A stretch of 64,000 nt of DNA from Pisolithus tinctorius (lineage: Eukaryota > Basidiomycota > Agaricomycetes > Boletales > Pisolithaceae): assembly GCA_024663395.1 (NCBI GenBank), contig JANFAH010000041.1, positions 310,001-374,000 of the forward strand. Direction: 5' to 3'. The notes below the pieces were generated by a model. It was not told where the DNA came from, did not search any database, and worked only from the letters and a program-made list of their open reading frames with translations. Position numbers and translations under genes: made by a program. How positions within the stretch are numbered: the stretch's first letter is position 1; each line of letters opens with the position of its first letter. Shown here one piece after another: positions 44,191 to 63,558 of the stretch.

Positions 44191-44427
44191 CTGTACTCAA
44201 GCAGAACCAAGTGCCTGCCCACATAATGTACCTACATTGTACTGTATGACAGGGCCAGCAGAGGCTGACAATTCACTGTGTCCCATGGGCCAGCAGAGGT
44301 TGAGCCCTACACTGAGTCATCCCCCTGCTGTATGGACCAGCCCAGCTTCAATTGTCAAATAACACATGAGTAGGCCACAATCAAATTGTCCCTGTAGTAT
44401 GTGGAGTAGCCTAGTGTGAGATGTCAC

Positions 44428-44821
44428 CTATCCAGTGGCATGCTGTGGCATGTGTAGATCAGCACTGGAAGTTGGCACAAGACCTTGGCATGCTTCAGGA
44501 TAGCTCACCAGTGTAGTGTTGTATGATTTCAGAGCACTCCAGGGCATACCATGGCCCTCTGGGGTGAGCTGTGGCAAGCCAGCCACTCTGGAGCAAATGG
44601 TGGAGCATGCCATTGTCCCCCAGGGTAAGCTGTGGCATGCCAACCACTCTGGAGCAAATTCCAGAGCACACTGTAGCACATGTGCCAGAGTATACCATAG
44701 CATGTGCCACAGCATGCCAGCCACTCCAGAGCAAATTCTGGGACACACTACAGCACATGTGCCAGAGAATACCATGGCATTCCAGACAACTCTGGAGCAG
44801 GCCATGGCCCTCTGGTGTCAC
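44428..44821. repeat. Imperfect minisatellite, left block
   Basis: Degenerate tandem units of roughly 60-100 bp built from phrases such as CTCTGGAGCAAATTC, GCACATGTGCCAGAG, ATACCATAGCAT and ATGGCCCTCTGG. Long open frames here are a by-product of the repeats. The same phrases recur at 46585-47030. The stretch 44191-44427 between this block and the Rep domain holds no supported gene. Confidence 0.7.
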
Positions 44822-44861
44822 ACACCAAAGGTGTTGTGGACATGGTTACAGCTGACTCTGC

Positions 44862-46452
44862 CTAACTCATTGACGAGTTGCGCACAATGCCCAGGCATGC
44901 AGATGAAGACTAAAGGCCTCATGTGTAGAAAGACTGTCGGACGTTAACAGTCATCCTTCACACAAGAATGAGTCGTCAGTGCTAAAGAGAAAAGAGGAAG
45001 CGAGTTAAGCGCACATTAAAGGTTTTTAGCGCCCGTGTATGGCATTCCAGTTTTCATCATATCTCCACCATTTCCAAAGATATCGACTCCATTCCCACAC
45101 TCGCTTAAAGTGCTCAGCCCCACGATTCTTCCTTCCAAATTTGGAGAGGATCCTCGCACCCTATGCGTTTCTACGGCACTCCATCCATCAGATGCTCATT
45201 TTGCTAAGTCCATCAATCATGGCCACCTCTTCATCGGTCGTCTCGCTTGTCTCATTTGCCAGAGACAGTGGCTACATATATCTGCCAGGCATTCCCACCA
45301 GCTTCCATCCTGAAGCCCCCTGGTTCATCCTGTCATTGTCAGCCCTGTCTCATCCCATGCAGCTTGGTCAGTGTGTTCTCCTTGTCAGTATGACTTCCAG
45401 AAGGACGTTCTTTGGTCGCCTCAGGTCTGTCACTTGGTTAGAAAGGTCTTATGTGGTCGTTTCAGTCTCCCCAGTTGATGAAGCATATGGATCATTCCTC
45501 CCTGCTCCCTGCACCGTCTTTATTCCAGTCTTGTCCATCATTCTTCCCACATTGCGACAGCTGCAGTATGGTCTACTGTCCTCCAGCCTCCCTGATCACA
45601 TTCATGATGAGTATGACATGCATCTTGCCTTCTTACTGCAAGATCCAGCAGAGGACATCCCCCCTTCTCCTCCTCCTCCGTCAGAGCCCCACAGACCCCC
45701 AATGCCCTAGCCCCCTTTGACACCTGACTCATGCCCTTCAATTCTGGAATTAATACTTCCCTATCTGGAAACACTGTCCATCTGTCATGCCATCTTTGGA
45801 TCTAGAGATGTCTCCACCGAGATCTAACTTGCATTGCCACCCCCTAATGTGATATCAGTGTGCTTACTCAGTTTCTGATTCTATTTGACTCATTTTGTGA
45901 TATTTTGACTATCCCTGACTTGTTTATTGCCAATACTTACCAATCCTCTTTGCTTGCTTACTTTTCATTTCTCACTTACTCATCATGATTACTCAGTCCT
46001 TACTCATTACTTACCAAGTGTTTGTGCCTTGTTTGTCACAAGCTGTGCTCCCCCCTCAGTATATAAACCCCCATGTACTTAGCTACAAAAAAAAAGCAAT
46101 CAGAAGTCACTCAGCAGTCAGTTCAGTGCCTATCTCGTCATCGACAGTTGAGGCTCATTCGGGAGAGTCTATCTGTCTTCATTCGTATCATTGGTAGTTG
46201 AGGCTCCATCAAGGGTCTATCTACCTTCATTCATTCATCTGAAGTATCATCTGCACTCTGTCAGCACACCTGCTTAGTCATCCATCCACTCCTGCATAAC
46301 TCGTCATTGACTTGTGCCAGGAGCACATCCAAAAGATCATCACACCAGAGTACTTTTGGCTGAATACCTTCACTCTATTCAGCATCCCCCATCTAGTCAT
46401 CACTTGCTTATCTACTCCTGCATAACTCGTCGATGACTTGTGCCAGGAGCAC
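44862..46452. other. CpG-rich insertion between the two minisatellite blocks
   Basis: About 1.6 kb with many CpG, in contrast to both flanks. The left end near 44862 reads AACTCATTGACGAGTTGCGC. The right end read as reverse complement has CATCGACGAGTTATGC, a partial inverted likeness. A TATATAAACCC box lies near 46061. A 223-codon plus-strand frame (45039-45710) is open but not recognised. It could be a non-autonomous DNA transposon or an LTR derivative; exact ends and target copies were not found. Confidence 0.5.
46288..46452. repeat. Direct repeat pair of 39 bp
   Basis: ACTCCTGCATAACTCGTC followed by GACTTGTGCCAGGAGCAC occurs at 46288-46326 and again at 46414-46452, with two base differences. 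The pair lies at the right end of the CpG-rich insertion. Confidence 0.75.
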
Positions 46453-46584
46453 TCTACTTGAAGTCCCTCCCCCCCACATCAGGTTTCCCTGCCCTCCAGG
46501 TTCCACGGAGGTAAACCACCACTTGCTCATATTTGTCTTTGGTGTTGGATTTGCTTGGTTTACACCAGCTTTCCACACTTTGAC

Positions 46585-47030
46585 TCACACCGGGGTGCAG
46601 TAAGGTTGGGCATATGTTCCAAAGCAAACTGCAGCATGCCAGCTGCTCCAGAGCAAATTCTGGAGTAAACTGCAGCACATGTGCTGGAGCATGGCACAGC
46701 CCTCTGGGATAAGCTGCGGCATTCCAGCAACTCCAGAGCAAATTCTGGAGTAAACTACAGGACATGTGCCAGAGCATACCATAGCATTCCAGAGAACCCC
46801 AGAGCAGGCAATGGCCCTCTGGTATAAGCTGCAGCATATGTTCCAAACCAAGGTGTGGCATGGCAGACACTCTAGAGCAAATTGCAAAGCAAACTGTGGC
46901 ACATGTGCCAGAGCATACCATAGCATGTCAGAGCACTTGGGAGCATGCAATGGCCCTCTGGGGTAAGCTTTGGCATATGTTCTGAAGCAAACTGCAGCAT
47001 GCCAGCCACTCTGGAGCAAATATTACCAGC
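46585..47030. repeat. Imperfect minisatellite, right block
   Basis: It carries the same phrases as the left block (CTCCAGAGCAAATTCTGGAG, CACATGTGCCAGAGC, ATGGCCCTCTGG). It is followed to about 47870 by CAGC/GGCA-rich, gene-free DNA. Confidence 0.7.
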
Positions 47031-47870
47031 ATACCCAGCATGCCTACCCTTGCAGATACTACCAGAATTGGCATAGCTTAAAAATTTGGCATTCAGTACC
47101 ACAAACTGGGATGCAGCACCATGTATTCAGAAGCAGTAGCAGCTGGCAGATATGGCATTCCACATTATGGCACATGGCAGCATGCAGCATAATTCATGGG
47201 GAAGTTGTGGCAAGATGCACTGTGGCACCTGGTGGCACCTGCTCCATAAGTCTCTGGAGGATTGTGGCAGCTGGCAGAGATTGCCCAGCACACACTGGCA
47301 ATGTGGCCAAGTCAGCTAGACTTGGTGGGATGCCTGGCAGCTGGCAGCATGGGCACAGAATACAGTGGCAAACACCTGACTGGCTTAGGATCCACATCAA
47401 GGCTTGGTGTGTGGCATGGATGGTTCTGCATACAGCAGCACATGGTTAGATGCAGAGGAATAAACTGGCAGTTCTCAGCAGCCAATGGCATTGACCCAAC
47501 ATACTGCAGCACACATCAGGATTGAGTAGGATTCATGTCAGCTGGTGGGATCCAGCATGGATAGTTCCATATGTGGCAGCACACAGCTAGGGTGCTATAG
47601 ATATGAACATGAAGCATAGCACGAATTGTTAGTATACTGCATATCTCACCACCAGTATAAGTTCATAACCTATACTTCATACCATCACAGAAGGGTGGCT
47701 AGTAATATTGCATTGATTTCATAGATTTCATTCAAACCAGGATTTTGCCAATCAAATACTGGACACCCAGGGCATTAAATAATGACCAATACAATACAAT
47801 ACAGGGTGCCATGGGTGATTTACATGCCTGTGAGAGCCTGCCACACCAACAGAATGCACATCCAATCACT
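47031..47870. other. Gene-free CpG-poor stretch
   Basis: About 840 bp with repeated GGCAGCTGGCAG-like phrases and a TACAATACAATACA run near 47790. Nothing coding is supported. Confidence 0.45.
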
Positions 47871-48152
47871 TCAAGGGACTCCAAGCCAGTTATGAATATT
47901 GTCCTGCATGTAGAATGCTAGTGAGCAATGGTTGCTGCTCACATCATTCACACCATGCTGCAAAAGCCAGCCAGAAAAGGCTACAACAGTGCCAGGCTGG
48001 TAATCGAATTGAAGACCAAGAGAGGGAATGTCAAGAATGCATTCAGAATAATTGCCAACACTGATGAGCATGTCATACCAGTCAGCATGGGATTGTGGGT
48101 CATGATGGAGGGGAGCTGACCAGTTAGCAATCATGGAGATGTTGGTATAAAC
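47871..48152 (-). pseudogene. TET/JBP-like 2OG-Fe(II) dioxygenase, C-terminal part
   Basis: The minus strand encodes the catalytic end of a fungal TET/JBP-type oxygenase: WSAPLHHDPQSHADWYDML, LDIPSLGLQFDYQPGTVVAF and GWLLQHGVNDVSS. The HxD iron ligands are His at 48105-48107 and Asp at 48099-48101; the distal His is at 47955-47957. These enzymes oxidise 5-methylcytosine using iron and 2-oxoglutarate. In mushroom fungi such genes are known to be carried with KDZ transposons, and a KDZ transposase lies at 57218-60666 on the same strand. The frame stops being host-coded at 48152, where the chromovirus LTR begins. The missing N-terminal side is at 54604 and above. Confidence 0.75.
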
Positions 48153-48551
48153 TGAAGCAACCAAAGATGAAGTCTTCTCAGCTATCACTTCAAACCAGAG
48201 AGTATTGGGAGTGGAACCCATTGATTGAGAAACAAGCTCAAAACGAACTAGATTGGAGAGAGTGACTATGACAAATGACAGGACTTATATACTGCCTTAC
48301 TTTTTGTACATATTGCCACAAGAGAATGTTCTGGAAAGAAGTAAACAAAAGAGAAAACTACACTATTGGTTGGATGCAAACATGTGTTAGTAATGAGGCA
48401 CAGCCTTACTAAGTATCATGTAAGCATGAAAGAGTAAACAAAAGGAAAAGTCCGAGATGACTAAGCATCCCTAAAGTGTAACCCTAACCAGAGGATGGAT
48501 ATATATGGGCAACTAGGAAGCACAGAAGTGAGAAGTCTTCTGGTCATTACA
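48153..48551 (-). repeat. Chromovirus LTR, downstream (3') copy
   Basis: Plus-strand ends are TGAAGCAACC and GTCATTACA. It has the same length as the upstream copy. Confidence 0.92.
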
Positions 48552-48567
48552 CTATCCCCTCCTAAGG
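48552..48567 (-). other. Polypurine tract of the chromovirus
   Basis: The minus strand reads AGGAGGGGATAG directly before the downstream LTR, the expected place for the plus-strand primer. Confidence 0.75.
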
Positions 48568-48690
48568 CTCGACTTCCAGGCGAGACCAAATAGAACGAAT
48601 GGTAGTAAACAGTTCTAGCACAGGTGTGAACAAGCTGTCAAAGCTTTCTGAGGAGAGGAGAGATAATTTATGGGGTGCCCCAGGGTGGGA

Positions 48691-49023
48691 TCAATAAAAA
48701 TCCTTGATCACCAACTGCGAATTCTTCAAGGCAGAGGCTGGCTCCCAAGTTTGATCTTCTTCAGGGTATCCCCTCCAATGCATGAGGAATTGAAGAGCTC
48801 CACATTTCAAACAGGAGTCAACAACATATTCAACCTCATATTCAACATCTCCTTCATCAGTAACCCTCTGCAGTCTGGGCCTGTTGACAGGCTGCCCATC
48901 AAGAGTGCCGAGATAGGGTTTGACCCATGAGACATTCACAACTGGGTGAATCCTCATGTTGCACAGCAACTTTAACTTAAGAGCATTCAGAAGTACCTCT
49001 AGAACTTCATACATATGGTCCAA
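48691..49023 (-). pseudogene. Chromodomain end of chromovirus integrase, out of frame
   Basis: The reading contains VEYEVEYVVDS and LMHWRGYPEEDQTWEPASAL, a chromodomain with its aromatic residues. In chromoviruses this module directs integration to methylated-histone chromatin. It is one frame away from the integrase because a TATG appears twice in tandem at the junction (around 49008-49016), a 4-bp duplication. Confidence 0.85.
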
Positions 49024-51709
49024 TCCACTTTTCAGAAAGTTTATGGCTCTGCCATTCTTTCAAGGACAGATGGTCTGTAGCTAGCCAGACCTGCGATCCA
49101 ATGGAGTAGGATGGAGCAGACAAGCAGTGTCTATCTGCTTGTTGCTTTTGCCAGGAATGTGCCTTGGCAAGGTTTGCTTTTATGTCCTCAAATACCTGGA
49201 ACCAGGATTTGGCAACTTCCTCTGCTGCTTCTACCTTCAAAGTTGTCAGTTTGATGCCCATCCTAGGTCTATAGGATTGAGTAACTTCAAAGGGGCACTT
49301 GCCAGTAGAAGAGGATGCAGAGTTGTTGTATGCAAACTGAGCCAAAGGTAGCCATTCCTCCCAATGAGCCTGTTGTTGGTTGGCGTACATCCATAAATAC
49401 TGTTGGATCTCGCAGTTCAACTGCTCTGTTTGTCTGTCCATCTGCAGGTGGAAAGCCATAGAAAGTTTTTTCTGTACTCCCAGCATTTTAAATAATTCCT
49501 TCATAAAAGAAGAGGCAAGCTGCAGGCCTCGGTCCAATATGATAGAATCCAGAAGTCCATGATGTTTCCAAACATGTGTCAGGTAAAGACGAGCTGTGCT
49601 AGCAGCTGTTTCTTCCACAGTGCAGGGAATGAACTCTGCTTCCTTAGAGAACCTATCAACAATGACTAGGACATGGGACTTCCCAGAAGATCCCTTAACT
49701 CCAAGGTCCATAAAGTCAGTCATTAACTCTCTCCAAGGCCTGTCAGGGACAGGTAAAGGTTTGAGTTCCCCTGCAGGCAGCCTATTTCCAGCCTTGCTGG
49801 CTTGGCATGTTTGACAATGCTTCATGTACTCTTCTACATCGGGTTTCAAGGTAGACCATGTAAACCAGCATGTGATCAACTCCTGAGTTCCTTTTATTCC
49901 ATGATGTCCCACTAGGGGAGAGTCATGTAGAGCATTAAGCAGCTTCTTTCTAAGTGCACCAGGCACCCAGATCTTTTCTCCATCATAATGAAGACCACCT
50001 TGGAGCTTGCATCCAGTGGGGACTCCTTCAGCTCTAGCAGACTCAATCCACAAATCTTCCATGAAGGGGTTTTCTAGTTTTACTGAGCAAACCTGACTTG
50101 GGTTTATAAATAGAGACTCTTCTGACTTTGCCCTTTCTTTTCCTCCTACAAAGTCCTCTCATCTCAACAGGGCATCTGGTCTTCCCATCATGACTCTGGG
50201 TTTGTGAACTAAAATACAGTTGAAATGACTTAAGTACTGTGCCCAATGTGCTTGGTGTGGCTGAAGCTTTTGTGCAGTCATAAACCATTTGAGGTTATGA
50301 TGGTCTGTCCAAATCTCAAACTGGTACAGGGTTGCCTCAAGGTAATGATGCCATTGCTCTAATGCATGGATAATGGCCAGCATTTCTTTGTCATGAACTG
50401 TATAATTAAGTTCAGCCCCAGATAGAGAGTGACTGGAGTAGGCAATGGGTCTCCAGAGACCATCATCACACTCTACCAAGAGCACTGCTCTGGTGGCATA
50501 GTCTGAAGCATCCGTTTCTAGCTGGAACTTCTGATCCTGGTCAGGGAACATAAGGATAGGTGCAGTAGTGAAGGCTTCTTTTAGCATGTCAAACACCATT
50601 TGACATTTGTCATCCCATATAAATGGAAGGTCCTTCTTTGTGAGGTTGTTCAGGGGTTTTGCAATCTGTGTGAAGTCCTTAATGAAGCATCAGTAAAAGT
50701 TTGCCAGGCCGAGAAAGCCATGAACTCCATGAATGTTGGTAGGTATGGGCCAATCTTGCACAGCAGAGATTTTGGTAGGGTCCATATGTACTCCATTAAT
50801 GCCAATGATCATTCCCAAAAAGTCTACCTCTTGTTGTCTGAAGATGCACTTCTGTGGTTTGACAAACAAGTCATTTATCTTCAACCTTCTAAGCACTTCC
50901 AGCATGATCTTGTCGTGCTCCTCCTGATTGTCTGTTTTCGTAAATATCATTAGGTCATTGATGTAGATGACAAGCACATCTTCCATATCACCAAAGATAT
51001 TGTTCATCATGTTCTGGAACATGGTGGGCAAGTTACAAAGCCCAAAGAACATGACCAGAGGCTTGAAAGCACTGTGATGGCATATGAAAGCAGCTTTCCA
51101 CTCATCACCTTCTTTGATCCTAACATTGTTGTAACCCCAGCAAAGATCCATCTTTGTGAAGAGTTTGCAACCTTTCAACTTGTCTACAAGCTGAGATATT
51201 AAAGGGAGAGGATATGAGTTTTTGACAGTATGCTCATTTAAATATCAATAGTCCTGGACCATATGCTTTTTGCCATCCTTTTTAGGGACAAAGAACACCA
51301 GAGAGGTTTGCAGTGATTTACTGGGCCAGATATAACCCTTCTTGAGCTGACCATCTATGAAGTCACTGACTTCTTTTTGCTCATCAGGGGAGAGAGGGAT
51401 CAACCTTCCCTTCTTTGGCACAAATGACTCCTTTAGTTCTATAGCATGGTCCCAAGGTTTCCTAAGTGGCATGTGCTCAGATTCCTTTTCAGAGAAGACC
51501 AATAAATATCCATGATATGCCTTCGGAACAAGTTCCTCAGGGGTTTTGTCTGTTTTTGGTTTGTCCATTCCTAGATTACAAATCCAGGTTACATAAGAGT
51601 CCATGGCTTCTCTCTCAAGTTTCTCGACCTTGTGTATGAATGAGGATTCAGGGGCTAACTGTTGGCATCTAGCCAGGCATCTTCCCATTTTGACTTCACT
51701 GGTTTCCAA
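49007..51709 (-). pseudogene. Chromovirus pol: RT, RNase H, integrase, broken by three TGA codons
   Basis: One frame throughout. RT (51709-50690) has FVPKKDGKKHMVQDY, TKMDLCWGYNN, GLCNLPTMFQNMM and the catalytic box YIND at about 50954-50965, where YIDD is expected. RNase H (50599-50159) has LETDASDYATRAVLL, EKMLAI-type and WTDHHNLKWF segments. Integrase (50062-49007) has the HHGIKGTQELI zinc module with CQTCQ, DFMDLG, ILDRGLQL and TEQLNCEIQQYL (D, D, E; the middle motif reads DRG for DRG/DNG). TGA codons at 51245-51247, 50690-50692 and 50159-50161 sit where Arg is expected (CGA to TGA). Confidence 0.88.
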
Positions 51710-52032
51710 TCTATCAGCAGGTTGTGCTGATGTAACCAGGTATGTCCCAGGATCATGGTACTACCTCCTAGATCAGTTATCTCAGCAAGAAGTTCCTTGT
51801 GATGATCAAGGTATGAGACTCGAAGGTGAGCCTGGTGCGTAATCCTTCCAGCGGAATTAGGTGACCCATCAACATTAAATATGTCCACTGCCCTTGGCAG
51901 TGCTATCTTTGGAATCTGGTTCCTTTTAACAAAGTTGTTATCTATAAATACTCCAGTAGTGCCACTATCAAGCAGCACATTCACCTTGAATGCCAAACCA
52001 GCATTCGTCCACAAGACCAAAGGGACCTCCAC
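51655..52032 (-). CDS. Chromovirus aspartic protease region
   Basis: It contains VNVLLDSGTTGVFIDNNF, the DSG active-site loop of retroelement proteases, followed by MILGHTWLHQHN, the ILG motif. The frame differs from pol and overlaps its start, so either a frameshift is used in expression or an indel has occurred. The 420-bp stretch to gag is A/T-rich linker. Confidence 0.8.
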   Translation of the reverse strand: MEVPLVLWTNAGLAFKVNVLLDSGTTGVFIDNNFVKRNQIPKIALPRAVDIFNVDGSPNSAGRITHQAHLRVSYLDHHKELLAEITDLGGSTMILGHTWLHQHNLLIDWKPVKSKWEDAWLDANS

Positions 52033-52452
52033 AGAATCCTTTAGGTTCAGTGTGTGTCGGGCTTCAGACCATACAGAGGTCTTTGCACTACTACCTTCCA
52101 GATCTGGGAGATCAAAAGAGACATTTTTTTTGTTTTTTATTGCAAGTGGAATTAAGCAGGCTTGGTTTTACATCTGGCCCCAAGCCCTTTTGGGACTCCA
52201 CTTCAGATGATGTAAAAGTAAGAGAAGAGGAAACAGATTCTGAACCATTAAATAACTCCTGTGGTTCTTCAATGTTAAGAAAAGAGAAATGATTGAAAGA
52301 AACTACTGGTACACTATTTTTTATTTTTTTATTTTTGACTTTTGTATTTTCTTTTGTATTTTTAAGTTCATAAGTAGAACAAAAACTGTAAAAAGAAGAA
52401 GAAGAAGAAATAGGAACAAATGTCCATATGCTAGAGTCTGCAGGACCCAATT

Positions 52453-53448
52453 TCACTGCAGCTCTGATTCTTTTAACTGGTTGATGTGAGCAATGATCTG
52501 CTTGAAGCTCATCCCCTCCATTGCTTGTAGGCAGGGGTCAGGTCCAGTGTCAGTATTTACAGCCCTGATGGGGCATCCTTGTGGTTGTGCCTGTTTAGGG
52601 CACTCGCTCCAGTAATGACCTTTGAGGCTGCATCTGAAACAGGTAATATGGGACTTGTCCTTAGGGGGTTCCTTCCCCTTTCCTTGCCATTGGGTGGCAC
52701 CTATATCCATGGGGGCACTGGCCCTGGGTTGCATTCCTGTGGCAGTGAAGCCACGAGGGTGATTTTGAGGCCATACCCTCGAAGAGGAGGCCATCATGTA
52801 TTGGTGGTTTTCAAAATTTCCAGCCACCAACTGGAGCTCCGTTATGTACTCTTTGTACATATCCTTTCTCTTCCCCAAATGATGCATGAGGTGGAGCACC
52901 TCAGGGTTTATGGCCTGTTCTAGGCACAGGATAGCCAAGTCATCAGAAGCACTTGCCATGAGCTTCCAACTATCAAATTCCACCGAGAAGGCATCCATTT
53001 GAGACTGTCCTTGCCTTGCCTTTTGCATTTTCTTCTGGGCCCAATCCCCATTGTTCATGGGCCAGAATCTGGAGTTGAGGTCAGCCACCACCTCATCAAT
53101 CATTGGCCAGTTTGCATTTGCCAAGTGGAAGTCCAACTTGGCCCAGGCATAGCTGCCAGTGATCAGACCAGTCATCCATGTCCAGAATGCCATGCAGTCC
53201 TGGCTTGTATAGCAGTGGATGGCCACTTTGCAGTAGGCCCTCATTTTGATGACCCACTCTTCATATTTGGCCATGGAACTGTTGAAAGTTCTGGGCTCAG
53301 TGACACCCCTCTTTGTGGGGTCAAAATTAGATGTTTGTGCTGCAGCTGGCACAGGCATGTACTGCTGCATGGCCTGAGCCATTGCTGCCACCATAGCTTG
53401 TACCATGGCATAATCAATGGGAGGTGGCTGGGGTTGGTTGGGGTTCAT
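52453..53448 (-). CDS. Chromovirus Gag with CCHC zinc knuckle
   Basis: A 331-aa intact frame. It has a Pro/Gln-rich N-terminus, then the capsid-like helical region with a retrotransposon Gag core (TWMTGLITGSYAWAKLDFH, FSVEFDSWKLMA), and near residue 275 a zinc knuckle CFRCSLKGHYWSEC (CX2CX4HX4C) that binds RNA. It is the only uninterrupted long protein left in this element. Confidence 0.87.
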   Translation of the reverse strand: MNPNQPQPPPIDYAMVQAMVAAMAQAMQQYMPVPAAAQTSNFDPTKRGVTEPRTFNSSMAKYEEWVIKMRAYCKVAIHCYTSQDCMAFWTWMTGLITGSYAWAKLDFHLANANWPMIDEVVADLNSRFWPMNNGDWAQKKMQKARQGQSQMDAFSVEFDSWKLMASASDDLAILCLEQAINPEVLHLMHHLGKRKDMYKEYITELQLVAGNFENHQYMMASSSRVWPQNHPRGFTATGMQPRASAPMDIGATQWQGKGKEPPKDKSHITCFRCSLKGHYWSECPKQAQPQGCPIRAVNTDTGPDPCLQAMEGMSFKQIIAHINQLKESELQ

Positions 53449-54204
53449 TTCTGCTTGTCAGTGGGACTGGTTTATGGAGGGGGTGGCAGATGGAATGGCA
53501 GTTCCAAAGGTTGTAGGGTTGGTTGAAGATGAACCCAAGTTCGTTCAGGTCAGGAGAGGGCAAAGGGTAAGTGAGCTCCAGAGTTACTTCATGGAAGAGC
53601 TCGAGAGGTGGAAGAGGAAGCAGGGTGAGCAGGGAAAGTGAGTGCAAGAGATGTGGAGTAGAGAGTTCCCTTTTATAAGGGAGGAATCTAAGAGGGAGAC
53701 AAAGCTCAACCTCTTCCTTCTTAATGGCGGGAATGGTGGTAAAAGTAAAGTAGGTGTACTACTCACTGATGGTGTTCAGGACCACTAAACATGTAGTCCA
53801 TTCGCTGTCACACACCTGATCAATCTCCTAGAAATAGGGAGAGACCAGCCTGGCACACTATGTGAACTACAGTGGGTATGAGAACGTCAACTACAGGTTT
53901 ACCTCTGCTGCCATGCAGGAACTACAACTAAGTATGGCTCAGCTGCTCTGGACCTTGTGGGCCCTCTTGATCAAGCGTCGCCCTTCGTACACCAAGCTTG
54001 ACCTCAGGATGGTGTATATATGTAGAACTAAAAAACTCCCTAAGACATTTGCCCAGCTGGCTCTGTTGCTTGGGCACTCTTGGTCACACTGATGGAAGCG
54101 AAAAGAATCTATGGGTGGAACTGCCCTCTACAAGTATTGTACTGCCATTGACCCTTGGTGCCAGGTATGAAGGGATAGGGGAGAAGTTATAAATCTAGTT
54201 CAAG

Positions 54205-54603
54205 TGAAGCAACCAAAGACAAAGTCTTCTCAGCTATCACTTCAAACCAGAGAGTATTGGGAGTGGAACCCATTGATTGAGAAACAAGCTCAAAATGAAC
54301 TAGATTGGAGAGAGTGACTATGACAAACAACAGGACTTATATACTGCCTTACTGTTTGTATGTACTGCCATGAGAGAATGTTCTGGAAAGAAGTAAACAA
54401 AAGAGAAAACTATGCTATTGGTCAGATGTGAACATGTGTTAGTAATGAGGCACAGCCTTACTAAGTATCATGTAAGCGTGAAAGAGTAAACAAAAGGAAA
54501 AGTCCGAGATGACTAAGCATCCCTAAAGTGTAACCCTAACCAGAGGATGGATATATACAGGCAACTAGGAAGTGCAGAAGTGAGAAGTCTACTGGTTGTT
54601 ACA
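54205..54603 (-). repeat. Chromovirus LTR, upstream (5') copy
   Basis: Plus-strand ends are TGAAGCAACC and GTTGTTACA; 399 bp. The internal sequence next to it (minus strand CTTGAACTAG) is not a classical TGG primer-binding site, so the primer is not identified. Confidence 0.92.
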
Positions 54604-54840
54604 TAAATTGTTGACCAGTGTTGGAGCACTGCCGACATTTTGGGATCATTCATGGCAGACCACTCAGTCAACTGCCACATGGCTTGGCAACCAGCATTGT
54701 ACAAAGGAGGGTGCATAATTGAAAGTGTAGCAGAGAGAATTGCCAATGGTGTTCAGATGGCATGGATCCATTGCCAAGCAGCTGGAGCCACAAGGTCAGC
54801 AGATATGGAAGGCTGGTGTGCCAGTGTCTACAACATTAGC
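54604..54840 (-). pseudogene. TET/JBP-like dioxygenase, part upstream of the chromovirus
   Basis: The minus-strand frame reads ADLVAPAAWQWIHAI, a TGA (Arg expected), TPLAILSATLSIMHPPLY and SAVLQHWSTI. Then it meets the LTR. Joined past the element, with one target copy removed, it runs directly into YTNISMIANWSAPLHHD at 48152. The segment order matches the helical part that precedes the HxD motif in fungal TET/JBP proteins. Confidence 0.68.
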
Positions 54841-57217
54841 AATGAGTATTTTCAGATAAAGCATGAGGATGACTCTCACAGCATGACCAAGTTGATGCTG
54901 GGCCGGTGAAAGCTCTAAGCAGCCTGCCAGCAAATGTTGATCCACCAGAAAGTAATCAGGTGATGTTTGCCAGGAACCATCAGATATGCTTCAAGTCAAC
55001 ATATTGTAAAGTGGGGGAATAGCTCCCACCATCTGGTCCTTGGTAGGGTTGTGAACTGAGGACAGCAGGATACATCACAATGCCTACCTGCATTGATTGG
55101 GACATTGCACTGGGTAGATACCACAAAGCAATTGCATCCCCATCACCCAGAATGATTGCAGGAACATCCAAATACCCACTCAGATATGGTGGGTGAGCAG
55201 AAAGGATGTGGGCCTTGTGGTTCAAATTGAAACCTGTTTCTCAAGGCAATAGGCTTTCTGACAGCCTGATTAATTCAATGCTGCAGGGAACTGCAATAAA
55301 TGTTAGCAGGATGTGCAGCAGCATGATTAAAATGGCATACAGGGATTACCATAGGCCTGGGCCAGTGTTGCCACCATTTGATTGAGCGCAATACATGTCT
55401 GGACCTTGAGGTCGAGAGGTTGTGGTGGGACAGCAGCAGTGCAAGGATGTGTCTCATGGAGAACTTGGTGGCACATGTACTCTGCAAGCTGGTCAGAAAG
55501 TAGATAGTTGGATGGGAATGTGCCGGTACCAGACATTTCTAATGCAATCAGGTTGGGGAAGTTCAGGGAATCCACCAGCAACAAGTGGGATATTGTCCAG
55601 AGATGCGAGCAACACATGCAGCATGGATCCCTCCAGCTGCGGCAATTGTGCGGCCAATATTGTCAGCAATGGTAGTTACTAATGTGGCAACATTGAACTA
55701 AATGCGGCATGGAAGCTCTCTGCAGCAATGTGGCCATAGCCTCATCAGCATTTTGGAATGCAGCCCAGCTGGAACACAACCTTGAACAGCTCTGAATGCT
55801 GCTGAAGTATACATTACAAAACATATTATCCCCTTCCACATGTTCCAATGGTGGTTTGCACATTTCTGATACTGCTGGCAACATGAATCAAGGTCTGGAT
55901 TACCAGCCTGTTTTGCTAGCAGCATCATTGAATGGGCAGTTGTGGAGCACTGTACTGGAGATGGTTCAATAGCACTGGCACATCAGGGATATCTGACTGT
56001 GAACCTGGTGGCTGGATGGCTTTATAGACTGCCAGCCCAAGAATGATGTTGACATAATTGGGGCCACAGGAAGAAGAGTACACAGAAGACCCAGTGATCA
56101 TGGGAATGCCCCTATAAATTTACTGGCATTGATTCTGATACAGTAAAGCTGCCAGCCTCAAAGGAAACTCATTATATATGGTAAATAATATGTACAGCAG
56201 CTGTATGTTCATTCCTGCACCTTCAACACCAACTCCACCCATGCAACCTGTAACGCAAGTTTAGATCAGGTAATGGCTTCCAGTGAGGACATCCACTCCT
56301 GTGAGTGTAAGATTAACTTGGAAAGATATGATAACTCCTGATCGATATCCTTCAAGCCTTCTGTACACATCACATGTAGTGCAGTGCATTCAGCAGTGGG
56401 GGATGGATGTGAATTAACAAGCAGTGGTAGCGAAATGCTGCCATTCTGATACCATGGGTGAGTTGGAAACGAGCAAAGGTGTGCTGCCACTTACCAATAC
56501 TCCTGTGAAAAATTCCGCAGCTTCCCCAATGATGTCCCTCAGCGGTCTCCTCTCATATCCCAATTCCACTGTGCTGCTGTCATTCTGCCACCATGCATGG
56601 GCCATGGTAGTGGCCAGTTTGACACAGCACTCCTTAATCCTTGTCATGCAGGGATTCAAGCATTTGATGAAAGCTAAAATGTCACAGGGACTCCATTTGC
56701 CATCATTCAGGTACATTAACAGCCTGTCAGCTGTGAGTGGCATGGTCAGGGTGATGGGATGGCAAGATGCCATGCCCATCAGCCACTCCATTGTACCCTG
56801 TACTACAATCAACCATTGCACCACCACAGGAACTGTTGCTTACCACTTCTGCCAGGAAATGTTGATACCAACTAGTGTGCCGGTATTCAGACCAATCCAG
56901 CTTCTTCATGGCAGCGACAAGGCAACAAAACCTCATTCCCATGTACTGTACAGCCATGGAGAGTTTGGCCATGGTGAACATTGACAACATGACTTACCAG
57001 CATGAAAGATGAGATGTCATAGTATATAAGCATTGGCCAACTCTCCCACAGCTTTGCATGGTGGCATGCATCTGCCATTAAGGCAGTACTCATTAGCAAA
57101 TGCTTACCTCACATTCAACTACACCAACCAATATACAATCAATAACCCTGGCATCATTTGGGAGATCTCAAGAATGATGTCATTGCAGATAGCTAGTGGT
57201 CTCTAGATGGAAATGGT
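54841..57217 (-). other. Degenerate interior between KDZ transposase and TET/JBP-like gene
   Basis: CpG-poor DNA with short broken minus-strand frames, for example 56414-56827 (LRDIIGEAAEFFTGVLVSG) and 55327-55617 (LNFPNLIALEMSGTG). These may be the N-terminal part of the TET/JBP-like protein or another element gene. No domain is recognised. Confidence 0.45.
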
Positions 57218-60200
57218 TCACAGAAGACATGCTAATCTGCCATACATCTGGCATTGCCATGCAGCATAGCATGCTGGCCTGGCCTGTCCCTGTGCCAATG
57301 CAGCAGCCTTTCTGCTGGTCCAAAATCTTACCTTGTTTTCAAAGAAGTCTTTAGTCCACTCCTGCTCGCATTTCAACAGCTGAACCTCCTCCTTCCATCT
57401 GTCCTGCAGCACTCTCATCCAGAGCCAATTGACCCTGTAAACTAGAGAAAATGATAAGTACATCTCAGATGCTGCTGCCATGTGATTGCTCCTCTCACAT
57501 TCTGACATCCAATCATTAGTGGCCATGTCCCTTGGTACATCCATGGTCCAGATCCAAGGTAGGGTATCGTCTCTGTGACCTCTGGCATTTGGGTCAGATA
57601 CTGCCACACCGATAGTTAGGTTGGAGTCATTCAATTCTTTGTATTGCTCCAGGATATCTGGCCTGGCCCCTAACCTGCCCAATTGAATGCGGCACCAGTG
57701 GTACACAGCAGCATGACATTGCATGGCTGCTTCAGCATTGGTGACCCTTCCCCAGGCATGCATGGCCATGTGGTAATTACTTCCATGGCAAATGTCAGTT
57801 TGAAAGATGACTGCCTTCTCTGCAAGCACAAGCTGCAGTTCATGAAGACAATCATTGGCCTGTCCTTGCTGCAGTTGCAGCTCCATTAGTGTCACATACC
57901 CCAGGCCAGATCATTCAAAATGATCTTTGCCAACATTGGATGGCAGCAGCAATGCAATGGTTTCTGGATCATGCGGGTGAGATGACTGGCACAGCTCGGC
58001 ATCCTTGAATCTGTCCCCAAATAGTTTTTTGGCAGTGTCAAAAATGCCATGTATATGGGACTGGAGATGATCATGGTGACATGCAATGGTGAGATTTTGA
58101 GCTTCCATTGCTCTTGAGGTGATGTGCCAGCATGCCACTGCAAGCTGGATTTGTGCTTCCTCTATCTTCAATGCCTTTGCAATCCAGGTCACCATACCCT
58201 GCGAATGCCCTGGCTGGGGGATGGCCAGTAAATCTATCTCAATTGCCTTTGCAGAGGGAGCTTCAATACCACTCAGCACCAATCCTGTCCAGGATAACCT
58301 TCAATACCTACCTTTCTGCAGCCTGACCTCATATATATCCATGGCCTGCAGCCTTGACAGCCTGTTGTCCAATGCCACTGCTGCCTCTTCCCCCCATGAT
58401 TGGCTGATTGCCAGTGGGATATTACCATTCAAATCAGCAAACCTGCCTTCAACCACTTAATAAGATTCCTCAGCAACCTTGAGTTTCCACTTGAGTCTCA
58501 TTGCTGTAGCTGGTTAGCCATGCAACCATGTCTGATACAAGCACTAGACTTATGCATTCTGACCATTTTCAGGAAACTGCTATCATTCATTTGGAAATCA
58601 AGTACCTCCTGCCAATGGGGAGTAGCCATGCCTCTAGCAGATGGGGAAATGATATTCAGGGAGGACCACAAGGTTTCCATGATCTCCCCATCCACCCGGC
58701 CAGCACCCACAATGAAATTGGGAGCATATCATGCAAAGCATTCTGTGTGGTGGCCATGAACATGCCACAACCCAATGCCAGGGCAGATCTGCCTGCCATC
58801 TGGCATGGATATATAGGCATTGGCATGTAGCCGTTGTTCTAAACCTTTGCTATACTGGCAGTTAATATCATAGAAATGTATCACTTGCTGGCCAGGGACT
58901 GTACCATGCCTGATGGCATGCACAAGTGCATAGTCCATGTTAACCTGCCTGTGATGTCAATGTCAATATTGTCATACATTGTTACAAGGTTATTCATACT
59001 GTTCGCCCTTCTGGAAGTTGACCATTGCATGTGGCACAAAACAGCCATGCCACACACAGGCACATCCACCTATTCAGATGCAAGCTGCTGCCGGTTGGCA
59101 TTTGCTTGATTAACTGCATGATGATTGCTGCAATCCAAGATCTTGTAGTGTGATCAGTCCATCAGGTAATACATTCCTGCACATCACCCACCTCAACCAC
59201 ATTTTTAGTGCTGCTCAAATATTCCTTGTATGGCTGTGATGTGACCATGTACCCCTTTCCATCCATCAACCAAGCTTCACTGCCAGCATCCTTTGGATGC
59301 ATATGCTCTGCCTTGAAATTCCCATCCATGACCAAGCATCTTGCCAGTGTCCAACTGGATTACACAGTGTATAAATGGCTAGTGGTGTTCATGGTATCAC
59401 TCACTGGGAATAATACATTGCATCTTCCAGAATGTTGATGCTGGGTTGGGGACATGCCGGACAGAATAACACTAATTCCCTGGGGCCAGCATCTTCTGTG
59501 CTCATGTGGGATCCCTGCCATTTCAGTAGTTTCAGGAGCCACCACATCCTAGCAACTCTCAGCAGTTCCCTGTACCTATCCTATCATCCAGCTAAGAGTT
59601 GTGTTGCAGTGATACAATTCAAAAAATAGGACCCACTGGCACCAGATGAGGAAAGGCATTGGAGGTTATGCAGCAAAGTTTGCTGTAGAAATTCATCACT
59701 GAGGTACCACATTCCACATTGTCCTGAACGAAGTCATCAAGTACTTGGAAGGTAAATGCAGTCCTTGTGGCCTTTGTGGTAGCAGGAAACATCCCAGCCT
59801 GCATCAGCTGTATGTGTGAATCATCTGCCCCAGGGCATCTACAATACTGCACATTGCAGTAGTGTATTCCATTGGTGTGCACAACAATTAGACAGCTTCA
59901 GTTCTTTGGGGCCTGCAGATTTGGTGGACAACCATCTTGATCCACATCCTCCCAATCACCTTCTTCCTCAGTTGTGACTTCATCGTTTGAACAACCACTG
60001 GCTGGGCAGTGCTTCCCACCATGCCCAACATGCAGTACCAAACTGGCCTGCATGGTAAATACAGGAACAACCCTCATGATTCAGCTGCTTACCAGCTGCA
60101 GGGATGATTCCTCAAAGAATGTTCCATTCCATTGTTCCACCCTGTGGAATGGCCAGTGCTTGTGTTCTGCCCAGCAACACATGGTGCAGAAGACCAGCCA

Positions 60201-60666
60201 ATGGGCACACTCAGTGCACTGGAAAATTCCATCCACTCCACACAGGACACAATCCCTTGGCTCAGGTGGGGCCTCCATGTCCAACAGGATGGCTAGATAA
60301 TGCCATTGGTGTGGCAACCACTGCTGCAGATAACTATTCTATAATTGTGTGACACTGTCATTGCAGGTTTGTTGGGCAATGTGGCATTCCACACACCTGA
60401 CTTTTCCAAGGTTTAGAAGGTGTTGCAGGCAATACATCATTATTGGAAGGCAGTTGTGCACCCACATCCTCCAACAGGCAGTCCAGGTGATCCAGGATAA
60501 CAGAGCCAGATGGCACTGGAGGCTGAGTTGCATGGCCTGGCACCTGCTTTCTGGGTGCTACTTTTACCATCTTATCCCTATATCCTTGGGTGGTTTTCAC
60601 TCTTTGCCAGGTCACCTGGGTCACTCTTGTAGTGGGTCCCACTGGTGCAATCTTTGACTTCCCCAT
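57218..60666 (-). pseudogene. KDZ (Kyakuja-Dileera-Zisupton) transposase, degenerate
   Basis: Read right to left. The N-terminus is at 60358-60666 (MGKSKIAPVG). A CxC2-type cysteine cluster lies at 60081-60317 (PRDCVLCGVDGIFQCTEC, CTMCCWAEHKHWPFHR) and at 59619-59882 (NVQYCRCPGADDSHIQLM). The catalytic core is at 58498-59069 (DYALVHAI, HFYDINCQYSKGLE, PGIGLWHVHGHHTECF, AGRVDGEIMETLWSSLN). The C-terminal helical region is at 57218-58282 (YRVNWLWMRVLQDRWKEE). KDZ elements are cut-and-paste transposons of fungi that often carry TET/JBP genes. Stops and shifts in every segment show it is inactive; the cysteine clusters and the D/H residues of the core can still be read. Confidence 0.85.
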
Positions 60667-61355
60667 GATGAATGTTGCAATGCAGAAGGGTTTTGTTCAC
60701 AACAAATACATGCAGCTGACACATGCTAGCAAGGTCTAACCACCAACTATGGTAATGCTGTCTTAGGATCTGGCACCTGCACATTGCCTAGAGATCAATG
60801 CAATGAATGAGCACTTGCAAAAAGCCTTCTCCTACATCATGCCCATAGTGCCTATACCATCCACAGCATCTCAATGCACATTGTCCAATTACCAAACATT
60901 TTGGATCCATGAAGTCTGAGAGGCACTGCCTTTCCATGTGGCTCAGGGATGGAAATCTCATGATTGACTAACAACCTTAGCCATCTTGGGAAACTTTCTG
61001 ATTAACTGGCATGCAAGAATGGACCAGACACTGGAATGTAACCTTCATTGACATGGGAGAATGCCAGAAAAGTCTATTCTCTTCAACAGACATCATACTA
61101 GCTGTCCCCTGAAAAATTGTGCACAAGCACCTCCATCCTCAATGGCATCAAGTGACTATGAAAGTGACTCATTCTCCAACAACACCAAACCCTCCCTGCC
61201 ACAAAAGGGGACCAGTCTTCAGCTGGCCAAAATTGAGATTCTTGAGGCCAAGCTAGAGTCATGGAAAAATGCTGACTGAAACAAGAGGAGCTCCATCATG
61301 TTAACCCTCAGAAACAAGATAAAGAACCTTGATGCAAATGTGACACTGAAAACAC

Positions 61356-61888
61356 ATGGATGGGTTCAGAAGAAGGTGTGCCACACCTTCCATTGATTAC
61401 CTGGCATATCCTTACCATTTCCAGGCAATTCAGACTTGGTTGTACAACCATGGCTGGAGCCACAGTCAACAGGCTCTGATCAAATATGGTGGTGGTTGGA
61501 CACTGAGGAAGGTGGTCATGCACCATCAAAAGAAATCAATCAACAAAGTGTTGGAAGAAGCCAGGGTCAAACCAGGATCCACAGAAATGATCAAGTCTTA
61601 TCAGAAGGCTGTCAACACCATCATGAAGTCCCTTACTGCCAAGGAAATACAGGAGGCCAAGGCATTGGCCACAGAATGGAATGAGTGGCAGCCACCTCAG
61701 GATGTTCAGTCAGAGTACATACCATTTGGCAATGTTGCCTGTCACTCACAAGAAACAGAACTGCAGAGAAGAAAGGCTGGAAATATACTGAGGAATTTGC
61801 TAAGGAAATGTGGAAGCATTGTGGTGCCAGGGTGGTAGTGATGGCAGCATGGGAAGATGCTGATGGAGAGGTGATAGTTGGAGTGTGA
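61356..61888 (+). pseudogene. Repeat-associated ORF, frameshifted
   Basis: The plus-strand frame 61356-61838 (YGGGWTLRKVVMHHQKK, AKALATEWNEWQPPQDVQ) continues in another frame at about 61765-61888 (KYTEEFAKEMWKHCGARV, then VMAAWEDADGEVIVG). A possible upstream exon is 61061-61279. The protein type recurs in transposon-rich mushroom genomes as far as recalled, but its function is unknown. It is divergent from the KDZ gene. Confidence 0.5.
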
Positions 61889-61910
61889 GGAATTTGTTCT
61901 TTGTGCAGAT

Positions 61911-62430
61911 TGTTACGTTTCACCCCTAACTTTTCCTTTCTGTTGTACATTTACTTTACTTTTGATCCGTTGGACTCAGTTTCCTTTTAGAGCCGTCTTC
62001 TCTTTGGTCTGATGGCTCTCTATTTCCACCACTGGCATTGTTACCTCATTACACGCTTAGGACATGTGTCGTCATTGTTCAACCAATGGTGTAGTTACCT
62101 CGAGTACATGAGGACGCCTCATGGTCCTCCTCTTGTAGTATTTAGACTGCCGGCTCAAGTCCTGGAAACCCAGACTTGAGCTGCTCAATTATACGCAGCG
62201 TTCTCAGAACTTTGCCCTCAGTATCCCTACCAGGATCACTCTTACCGGCGTTGCTTAAATCCTCTGTCGTTTACAGAGGTTACTGCAGCTGTTGCTCAGT
62301 AGAAACCATAGTCTGCAATTGAGCTCTCCCTACATCTAGACTTTGATCGAGCGTAACAAAAGCTCAAGTCTACCAGCCTTTGGCCGAATCGGTCACTGCT
62401 TAGTGCACCACCACGAACCCCTGAAACAAC
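61911..62430 (+). repeat. Probable 5' LTR of a second Ty3-type element
   Basis: It starts TGTTACGTTT just after CpG-poor DNA and ends near CTGAAACA/ACCA at about 62426-62432. TTGGGTGCTGTTGCG follows, a plausible primer-binding site, and then gag. No second copy is in the window, so the right boundary is approximate. It is richer in CpG than the island. Confidence 0.65.
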
Positions 62431-62439
62431 CAACGTTGG

Positions 62440-63558
62440 GTGCTGTTGCGACCCACTCGTGAAGAATCATCATCTGACGAAGAACAGGAGAGCACTGTCA
62501 CAGACACCTCCTCCAACGAACCCGAACAACCGGATAGAGGCTTTACCTCTGGTATCCTCTCGAACCTTTTCACTCACTCCCTCGCTTCACTCGGTACCCC
62601 AATCCCACCGGTACCAGCCACACTTCCTACACTCCCAACCCCACCACAGAATACGATGTCCGGTTCATCATCGAAGGGAATGACTGCCATCACAGGAGTC
62701 AAACCCACTGAATTGAAGATTGGTGCTCCCTCGGATTTTGATGGAGACCAGAAGAATGCCATGAGCTGGCTGTACTCCGTACAGACCTATCTCTTGGTCA
62801 ACGAGGAACTGTACGACACTGACACCAAAAAGGTGGTCTATGCCTTGTTGTACATGAAGAAAGGAGTTGCCCGTTCCTGGGCAGCCACCTACCAGAAAAT
62901 AGCTCTGGAGAAAACTAATCCGAGCTTTGGAACCTTCACTGATTTTGTGAAGAATTTTAAAGAATTGTTCACCTCTGCAGACACCGCTGGAACTGCAATC
63001 GCCAAATTGCGAACCCTAAAGCAAAAAGAATCGGTGGAACAGTATATCACCGATTTCCGAACAGCCGCCGCCGATTCTACCATCACGGAAGATGTCACCT
63101 TGATCAAGTTCTTCTCACAAGGACTCAAACCTTTCATCGTGAACTGAATCCACATGATGGAAACCACTCCCACTAAAATTACTGAGTGGTACACCCAAGT
63201 GCAGAAGTTCGACGCCAAGTGGAGAAAGGTGAATGAATTCTCCACAAAAAAAGAAAAGAAGACGTTCCACCCAAGGAACAATTTTGCCAAAGAAAAAGAT
63301 CCAAACGCTATGGACATGGATGGAGTGAGACTCTCCAAAGAAGAATGAGATCGTCACATCAAAGAAGGAAGATGTTTCGGTTGCAGAAACAAAGGACACC
63401 TCTCTTGAGAGTGTCCAGACAAGGGGAAAACTCCCCAAAAGAAAGTCAAGAAAATCCGCAAAATTGTGGAAGTAGAAGAAAGCGATGATGAAGAAAAAGT
63501 CGCTGGTCCATCTATCGCTCTAGTTAACATCGCTAGAGCCCTAGGAAAAGATTTTTGA
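62440..63558 (+). pseudogene. Gag of the second Ty3-type element, interrupted by TGA codons
   Basis: One frame, first ATG at 62656, though coding-like sequence extends upstream to about 62458. The capsid-like part has FDGDQKNAMSWLYSVQTYL and FGTFTDFVKNFKELF. A zinc knuckle follows at 63370-63411 (CFGCRNKGHLS, stop, EC). Stops at 63145-63147, 63346-63348, 63406-63408 and 63556-63558 are all TGA in the gag frame; the knuckle one replaces Arg of the usual LSRECP. Otherwise the protein reads without frameshift. Confidence 0.8.

What the first reader, a model, noticed from the sequence alone, without database searches (positions are those of the whole stretch)
47871..54840. TET/JBP-like 5-methylcytosine dioxygenase gene cut in two by a chromovirus
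The catalytic end (HxD and distal His) lies at 47871-48152 and the preceding helical part at 54604-54840, both minus strand. Between them is a 6451-bp chromodomain retroelement with target copies TAAAC/TAAAT. Across the insertion the frame joins exactly (..HWSTI, then YTNISM..). A KDZ transposase sits upstream on the same strand, the known partnership of fungal TET/JBP genes. A DNA-demethylation gene carried by one transposon was thus disabled by another that targets heterochromatin.
Basis: partly seen in the sequence, partly recalled or inferred. Interest (0 to 1): 0.85.

Follow-up and report, generated by a model that had tools for sequence, protein, structure and literature searches.

The report
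Decayed transposon TET gene, retroelement inside
In a pine-root fungus, one decayed copy of a DNA-demethylase-like gene carried by a jumping gene was split by a second jumping gene; the nest is ordinary, but the way such copies rot at methylation-type sites is informative.

Summary
A Tet_JBP (PF12851) catalytic end lies at 47871-48152 (-), its preceding part at 54604-54827 (-), and between them a 6451-bp chromodomain Ty3-type LTR element with TAAAC/TAAAT target copies. All 15 fetched sister loci in the genome (Pisolithus tinctorius, inferred) are uninterrupted exactly there. The carrier is a KDZ DNA transposon with TET/JBP.

The story is only partly right. The insertion probably did not disable a working gene. 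At the positions of three arginines important in CcTet (R321, R385, R393) this copy reads W, H, Q, and it has two premature TGAs, one of them the '47871 end'; all five are CpG-type changes. The closest empty-site copy shares four of the five. The insertion is younger than the split from that copy. Parallel decay is common, so the order is likely, not proven. The other haplotype has only a solo LTR, so the gene is cut in both. Of 52 best-scoring TET loci, 35 keep all four checked residues and an open stretch.

More interesting: between near-identical TET-bearing copies CpG sites change roughly 100-600 times faster than other sites in most pairs (42 of 60 printed). Whether TET cargo protects its own element could only be tested weakly; no clear protection was seen.

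The parts
47871..48152 (-). catalytic end of TET/JBP (HxD, distal His kept; 2OG-Arg position reads His); ends at a premature TGA (47873-47871)
   Evidence: PF12851 E 6.6e-11; CcTet alignment; reading against 15 copies
47820..47870 (-). rest of the last exon beyond the premature TGA, to the probable family stop TAA at 47822-47820
   Evidence: frame followed by eye; copies read through the TGA place; C29a frame printed
54604..54827 (-). upstream part of the same last exon, one in-frame TGA at 54755-54753
55100..55160 (-). probable earlier exon (..ILGDGDAIALWYLP.. before a GT donor)
   Evidence: read by eye; the like motif of relative P0005 opposite CcTet is only a sub-threshold stretch; inference
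48148..48152 (.). target-site copy TAAAC
54604..54608 (.). target-site copy TAAAT
48153..48551 (-). 3' LTR of the chromodomain element (399 bp)
54205..54603 (-). 5' LTR (399 bp)
52453..53457 (-). gag-like ORF with weak zinc knuckle match (below cut-off)
49007..52167 (-). pol region (protease, RT, RNase H, integrase) now cut into several abutting or overlapping ORFs
48691..49059 (-). integrase tail with chromodomain (PF00385 E 4.7e-12)
   Evidence: in the genome search the window copy is the only listed match at 100%, the next best is 92%; 150 of 1357 candidates scored
58576..58956 (-). KDZ transposase domain piece, one in-frame stop
44220..61910 (-). extent of the TET-bearing KDZ transposon copy in the window (3' end 44220 ..TGTG; upstream cut off at 61910, where C3 and C61 continue alike)
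44816..46625 (.). second insertion in the tandem-repeat part of the same transposon copy
   Evidence: in most relatives the match runs on from 46626 to 44815

Best explanation
A nest of three layers in a transposon block of Pisolithus tinctorius. Layer 1 (shown): a KDZ DNA transposon copy with a TET/JBP gene whose sequence decayed at CpG sites until active-site arginines and the reading frame were lost (states shown; CpG methylation as the cause is inferred). Layer 2 (shown): a chromodomain LTR retroelement inserted into the last exon with a 5-bp duplication. That decay came largely before insertion is inferred from dating and from lesions shared with the closest empty-site copy. Layer 3 (shown): the other haplotype has only one LTR at the same place; recombination between the two LTRs is the inferred cause. 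The retroelement thus probably hit an already dying gene, one of very many, and no loss of demethylase function needs to follow.
For: Empty site in 15 of 15 fetched sister loci. Haplotype C80 has flank + one LTR + flank with the same target copies; its LTR matches the 54205 LTR over most of its length and the 48153 LTR at one doublet near its start. Two window genes recur at 100% once more, on C81, so C81/C80 is taken as the other haplotype (about 99% identity over the overlap). Positions R321, R385, R393 read W, H, Q, with TGA at two more arginine sites, in both haplotypes; the empty-site copy C34 shares four of the five states; C66 keeps all five arginines. CcTet R385A has no activity, R321 changes nearly eliminate it and R393H drastically reduces it (passages of PMC11040006). 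Insertion age / age of split from C34 = 0.26 (95% CI 0.05-0.79) on non-CpG sites (0.35, 0.09-0.92, with three more flank columns). Of CpGs in the LTRs 0.91 (0.79-0.97) decayed since insertion, so the earlier, probably longer interval should have removed most CpGs of the gene too. CpG observed/expected is 0.06 in the transposon, 0.12-0.13 in the retroelement, 0.84-1.14 in the 13 bins of the gene half.
Against: CpG decay repeats itself at the same sites in separate copies: WIN-C34 agree at 100 of 149 doubly decayed sites (0.67), but 12 other relatives give 0.55-0.79, and four of them (C3b, C66, C3a, C96) equal or exceed C34. The four shared lesions may therefore be partly parallel (chance of 4 or more of 5 at one half each is 0.19, my arithmetic). 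The upper end of the age ratio (0.79) would leave only about half of the CpGs decayed before insertion. LTR age rests on three non-CpG differences. The crossover in the C80 LTR rests on one CpG-type doublet.
Confidence: 0.75

Rival explanations
1. One reading: a functional TET/JBP gene was inactivated by the chromovirus, and CpG decay followed.
For: The insertion is real and cuts the catalytic domain. Parallel CpG decay leaves the order formally open; agreement with C34 is not above that with four other relatives.
Against: The insertion postdates the split from C34, which shares four of five lesions without it; the point estimate puts it at about a quarter of that age.
Confidence: 0.21
2. The retroelement family is attracted to TET-bearing KDZ copies (by its chromodomain, or by a local hot spot).
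For: A second, separate insertion of the same LTR family lies 64 bp away in the exon of copy C53, in the other orientation to the gene, with its own target copies AGCAT/GGCAT, now a solo LTR. Chromodomain present.
Against: Two events, noticed after the fact; the two target sites share no evident motif; other nested insertions occur in these copies too. No genome-wide test was made: the LTR searches scored 40 of 173 and 40 of 175 candidates.
Confidence: 0.15
3. Assembly artefact or chimera.
For: Repeats are prone to misassembly.
Against: Target copies, divergent LTRs, and a solo LTR at the same place on another contig.
Confidence: 0.02

Closest known systems
TET+ Kyakuja (KDZ) transposons of Agaricomycetes, AG type (PMC12730594: abstract, passages, and sections 3.2.1 and 4.2 read)
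   Same: KDZ transposase and TET/JBP on one strand; Boletales reported to hold only TET+ Kyakuja; 3' end ..TG
   Different: 7-bp target copies not found here and 5' end not reached; [quoted passage not shown]
CcTet of Coprinopsis cinerea (PDB 7VPN, 8JKK; PMC11040006 passages)
   Same: ungapped alignment over the catalytic end, Fe ligands H326, D328, H376 kept
   Different: positions R321, R385, R393 read W, H, Q; two premature stops; insertion
Fungal chromodomain Ty3/gypsy elements (chromoviruses; name recalled)
   Same: protease, RT, RNase H, integrase, chromodomain; TG..CA LTRs; 5-bp target copies
   Different: gag matched only weakly; the pol frame is broken in this copy
CpG-biased hypermutation of repeats in Tricholoma matsutake (PMC6980582, passages)
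   Same: C-to-T at CpG in repeats of an ectomycorrhizal agaricomycete
   Different: here measured between near-identical TET-bearing copies

Membership tests
TET/JBP 2OG dioxygenase | PF12851 match over cut-off | tested here: met
   42.2 and 45.8 bits against 34.9
TET/JBP 2OG dioxygenase | Fe(II) ligands HxD and distal His | tested here: met
   positions of CcTet 326, 328, 376
TET/JBP 2OG dioxygenase (working enzyme) | 2OG-binding Arg (CcTet R385) | tested here: not met
   reads His in both haplotypes
TET/JBP 2OG dioxygenase (working enzyme) | uninterrupted reading frame | tested here: not met
   two premature TGAs and the insertion
TET+ KDZ (Kyakuja) transposon | KDZ transposase and TET/JBP as one unit | tested here: met
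   KDZ at 58576-58956; window 54603-61910 collinear with copy C3; eight KDZ-TET pairs taken from the lists (C96, C18, C66, C3, C16 twice, C27, C50) lie about 4.2-4.35 kb apart; other pairs were not tallied
TET+ KDZ (Kyakuja) transposon | 5'-CA..TG-3' ends and 7-bp target copies | tested here: inconclusive
   3' end ..TGTG with differing flanks in three copies; 5' end not reached, no target copy found in window or C3
TET+ KDZ (Kyakuja) transposon | Kyakuja rather than Zisupton by transposase tree | not tested
   only the shared KDZ domain was used
Chromovirus | Ty3 domain order with chromodomain after integrase | tested here: met
Chromovirus | LTRs TG..CA and short target copies | tested here: met
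   5 bp, one mismatch
Chromovirus | chromodomain guides insertion to heterochromatin | not testable with these tools
   no chromatin data
RIP-like hypermutation | large excess of change at one dinucleotide in repeats | tested here: met
   CpG:other ratio 104-240 in 7 of 9 pairs, 29 and 43 in two; 42 of 60 printed pairs at 100-600, 4 above, 7 at 15-97, 1 with CpG changes only, 6 identical
RIP-like hypermutation | strand-clustered runs of change | tested here: not met
   runs test: 12 of 13 copies not clustered at 0.05; window copy P 0.035, not corrected

The most novel reading that the evidence does not exclude
In Pisolithus an active, CpG-directed, RIP-like process destroys TET-bearing KDZ transposons through the CpG-containing arginine codons of their own catalytic site. 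TET cargo gives no protection in cis, and TET oxidation of 5mC may even speed the change. This would be a real genome defence in a group said to lack one, not passive deamination.
Probability: 0.3. Interest if true: 0.7.

Novelty: new member of a known kind. Interest (0 to 1): 0.4.

Why it matters
The nest itself is ordinary for a repeat block. It matters as a test case for the idea (PMC12730594) that transposon TET genes counter methylation and C-to-T decay. The subfamily loses the 2OG-binding arginine, which the enzyme cannot spare, because it is written with a CpG, while the metal ligands survive. Between haplotypes 0.23 (0.14-0.34) of CpGs changed in the TET-bearing element and 0.30 (0.25-0.36) in other sequence of the block. 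That comparison is weak: this TET is dead, and non-CpG change was higher in the element (14 of 9343 against 5 of 7791), so a normalised comparison would favour it.

Tried and rejected
Element boundary at 61910: rejected, because C3 and C61 run on alike beyond it. A 7-bp target copy of Kyakuja type: not found in the window or C3. Strand-clustered RIP tracks: not found. Test of insertion preference for KDZ/TET: not done, lists capped. Inverted repeats as transposon ends: 251 pairs, the 25 longest shown, none convincing. Pfam scan of ten ORFs around the site: only the gag ORF at 62425-63147 matched over cut-off. Three of 15 copies (C15, C14, C29a) hold non-homologous stretches that inflate their branches; they stayed in the tree and as references (C14 and C29a not compared pairwise with the window there), and are not among the nine pairs. 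One search counted 375 pairs of TET loci, many sharing loci, and printed the 60 least divergent; pairs under 1500 aligned bases or with fewer than 20 CpG sites were dropped. Its ratio is per CpG dinucleotide with a likelihood correction, that per CpG cytosine without. Structure prediction was not used.

Full report
Source. The window is G000:C41:310001-374000 of a 92.5-Mb genome in 221 contigs. Lengths of C41, C2, C12 and C16 equal those of contigs that bear Pisolithus tinctorius proteins (BKA82DRAFT), so the organism is inferred to be that ectomycorrhizal fungus of the Boletales (taxonomy).

What is there. The catalytic end of a TET/JBP dioxygenase lies at 47871-48152 on the minus strand (PF12851; CcTet 312-403). 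The preceding exon part ends at 54604. Between them is a 6451-bp element with 399-bp LTRs, target copies TAAAC/TAAAT, and protease, RT, RNase H, integrase and chromodomain matches. Its pol region is split into abutting or overlapping ORFs, so this copy looks dead. Two further subfamily hits are C53, cut by its own LTR, and C2:6305168, not examined.

The carrier. The gene belongs to a KDZ transposon. A KDZ domain piece lies at 58576-58956, same strand, with one stop. Copy C3 is collinear with window 54603-61910 at 90.7%. The 3' end is at 44220 (..TGTG), where window, C3 and C61 flanks differ. A second insertion occupies 44816-46625. The genome gave 150 Tet_JBP matches (149 over the cut-off, 186 candidates) and 160 KDZ matches (463 candidates); both are lower bounds and count both haplotypes.

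The other haplotype. C80 carries the same locus at about 99% identity but only one LTR, with the same two target copies. This LTR follows the 54205 LTR from alignment column 104 on, with a few differences of its own, and agrees with the 48153 LTR at one doublet before that. This is what LTR-LTR recombination would leave, but the crossover rests on one CpG-type doublet. Two genes of the window's left half occur once more at 100%, on C81, so C81 and C80 are taken as the other haplotype. None of the 150 listed chromodomain matches lies on C80. The TET frame is thus cut in both haplotypes, by a full element in one and a solo LTR in the other.

Was it alive when hit? In CcTet, H326, D328 and H376 hold the metal; R385 binds the 2OG carboxylate and R385A abolishes activity; R321 changes nearly eliminate activity and R393H drastically reduces it (passages of PMC11040006). 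In the window copy the metal ligands are kept, the three arginine positions read W, H and Q, and TGA stands at two further arginine sites. C80 is the same. The empty-site copy C34 shares four of the five; C66 keeps all five. In C66 all five are CpG-containing codons, so the visible HxD and His say little about activity. R321 is not a sharp criterion: some open-frame copies of another subfamily read W there. Of 52 TET loci, HxD His and distal His are kept in 52 and Asp in 51, but the Arg in 36; 35 have all four and no stop in the stretch. These are the best-scoring loci (60 fetched, 8 dropped as the same place; window and C80 included), so they lean towards intact ones.

Order of events. In an unrooted tree of non-CpG columns C34 groups next to window + C80 (supports 99 and 100). 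The LTR pair differs at 25 sites: ten TG/CA doublets, two single CpG changes, three others in 373 columns. Against the window-C34 difference (88 of 2855) the insertion age is 0.26 (CI 0.05-0.79). Since insertion 0.91 (0.79-0.97) of LTR CpGs decayed. If the rate was steady, the earlier interval would have removed nearly all CpGs of the gene at the point estimate and about half at the upper limit (my arithmetic). Against this: agreement of decayed states between window and C34 is 100 of 149, while 12 other relatives give 0.55-0.79, four of them (C3b, C66, C3a, C96) as high or higher, so parallel decay is common and the shared lesions alone do not settle the order. C80 agrees at 131 of 131.

Decay. 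CpG observed/expected is 0.84-1.14 in the 13 bins of 1-26000 and 0.01-0.21 in 16 of the 17 bins of 28001-62000, with 0.39 at 34001-36000. Between near-identical TET-bearing copies CpG change exceeds other change 104-240-fold in seven of nine pairs and 29- and 43-fold in two strongly decayed pairs. Of 375 pairs the 60 least divergent were printed: 6 identical, 1 with 18 CpG changes and no other, 42 at 100-600, 4 above, 7 at 15-97. The two calls define the ratio differently, and pairs share loci. Strand runs are not clustered in 12 of 13 copies; the window copy gives P 0.035, uncorrected. The excess is far above the roughly tenfold one of passive 5mC deamination in mammals (recalled), but the lack of clustering leaves the mechanism open. 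Three cytosine methyltransferase (PF00145) matches exist, at C6, C3 and C59. [quoted passage not shown] Kojima 2025 states that hypermutation is not detected in Agaricomycotina (section read), while the T. matsutake paper reports CpG hypermutation (passages).

Does TET cargo protect its carrier? Between haplotypes 0.23 (0.14-0.34) of CpGs changed in the element and 0.30 (0.25-0.36) in other sequence of the block; non-CpG change was 14 of 9343 and 5 of 7791. The intervals overlap; normalised by other change the element would look slower, on small counts. This TET is dead, so the test is weak. C66, which keeps all five arginines, also differs from its near twins C3a and C96 mostly at CpGs (49 and 48 CpG-type sites against 2 other changes each).

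A second hit. In copy C53 a solo LTR of the same family (390 bp, opposite orientation to the gene, AGCAT/GGCAT) interrupts the same exon 64 bp away. It is suggestive, but was noticed after the fact.

Verdict. Observation confirmed; interpretation partly supported. A transposon nest, new member of a known kind, with a useful lesson on CpG decay of TET-bearing elements. Paper searches on TET/JBP, KDZ and Pisolithus listed nothing on this locus in the titles and abstract starts shown; no search was made for the locus itself.

Noticed in passing
window 1-26000 against 28001-62000: Sharp border between a gene half (CpG observed/expected 0.84-1.14) and a repeat block (0.01-0.21 in 16 of 17 bins).
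   Followed up: partly
C53:217947-218337 (L077): Separate solo LTR of the same family in another TET copy, 64 bp from the window's site in copy coordinates.
   Followed up: yes
window 44816-46625: Unidentified 1.8-kb insertion inside the tandem-repeat part (units about 139 bp) of the KDZ copy.
   Followed up: no
window 62425-63147 (+): Gag/Ty3-capsid ORF of another LTR element, in a bin with CpG observed/expected 0.63, so perhaps younger.
   Followed up: no
window 23133-25169 (-): HET-domain (heterokaryon incompatibility) protein at the edge of the repeat block.
   Followed up: no
window 35396-36139 (-): Fungal protein kinase fragment inside the repeat block, near a bin with less CpG decay (0.39).
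   Followed up: no
L069 (C34:283001-293000): Copy C34 has its own insertion of about 5.5 kb at the point matching window 56713-56720.
   Followed up: no
184-aa frame family (C1:1888491 and others): 18 TET loci listed with the same score and open frame, perhaps a recent burst.
   Followed up: no
C4:48853-56122 and C27:830919-838184: The same LTR-family arrangement, with an extra LTR piece, on two contigs, probably haplotypes.
   Followed up: no
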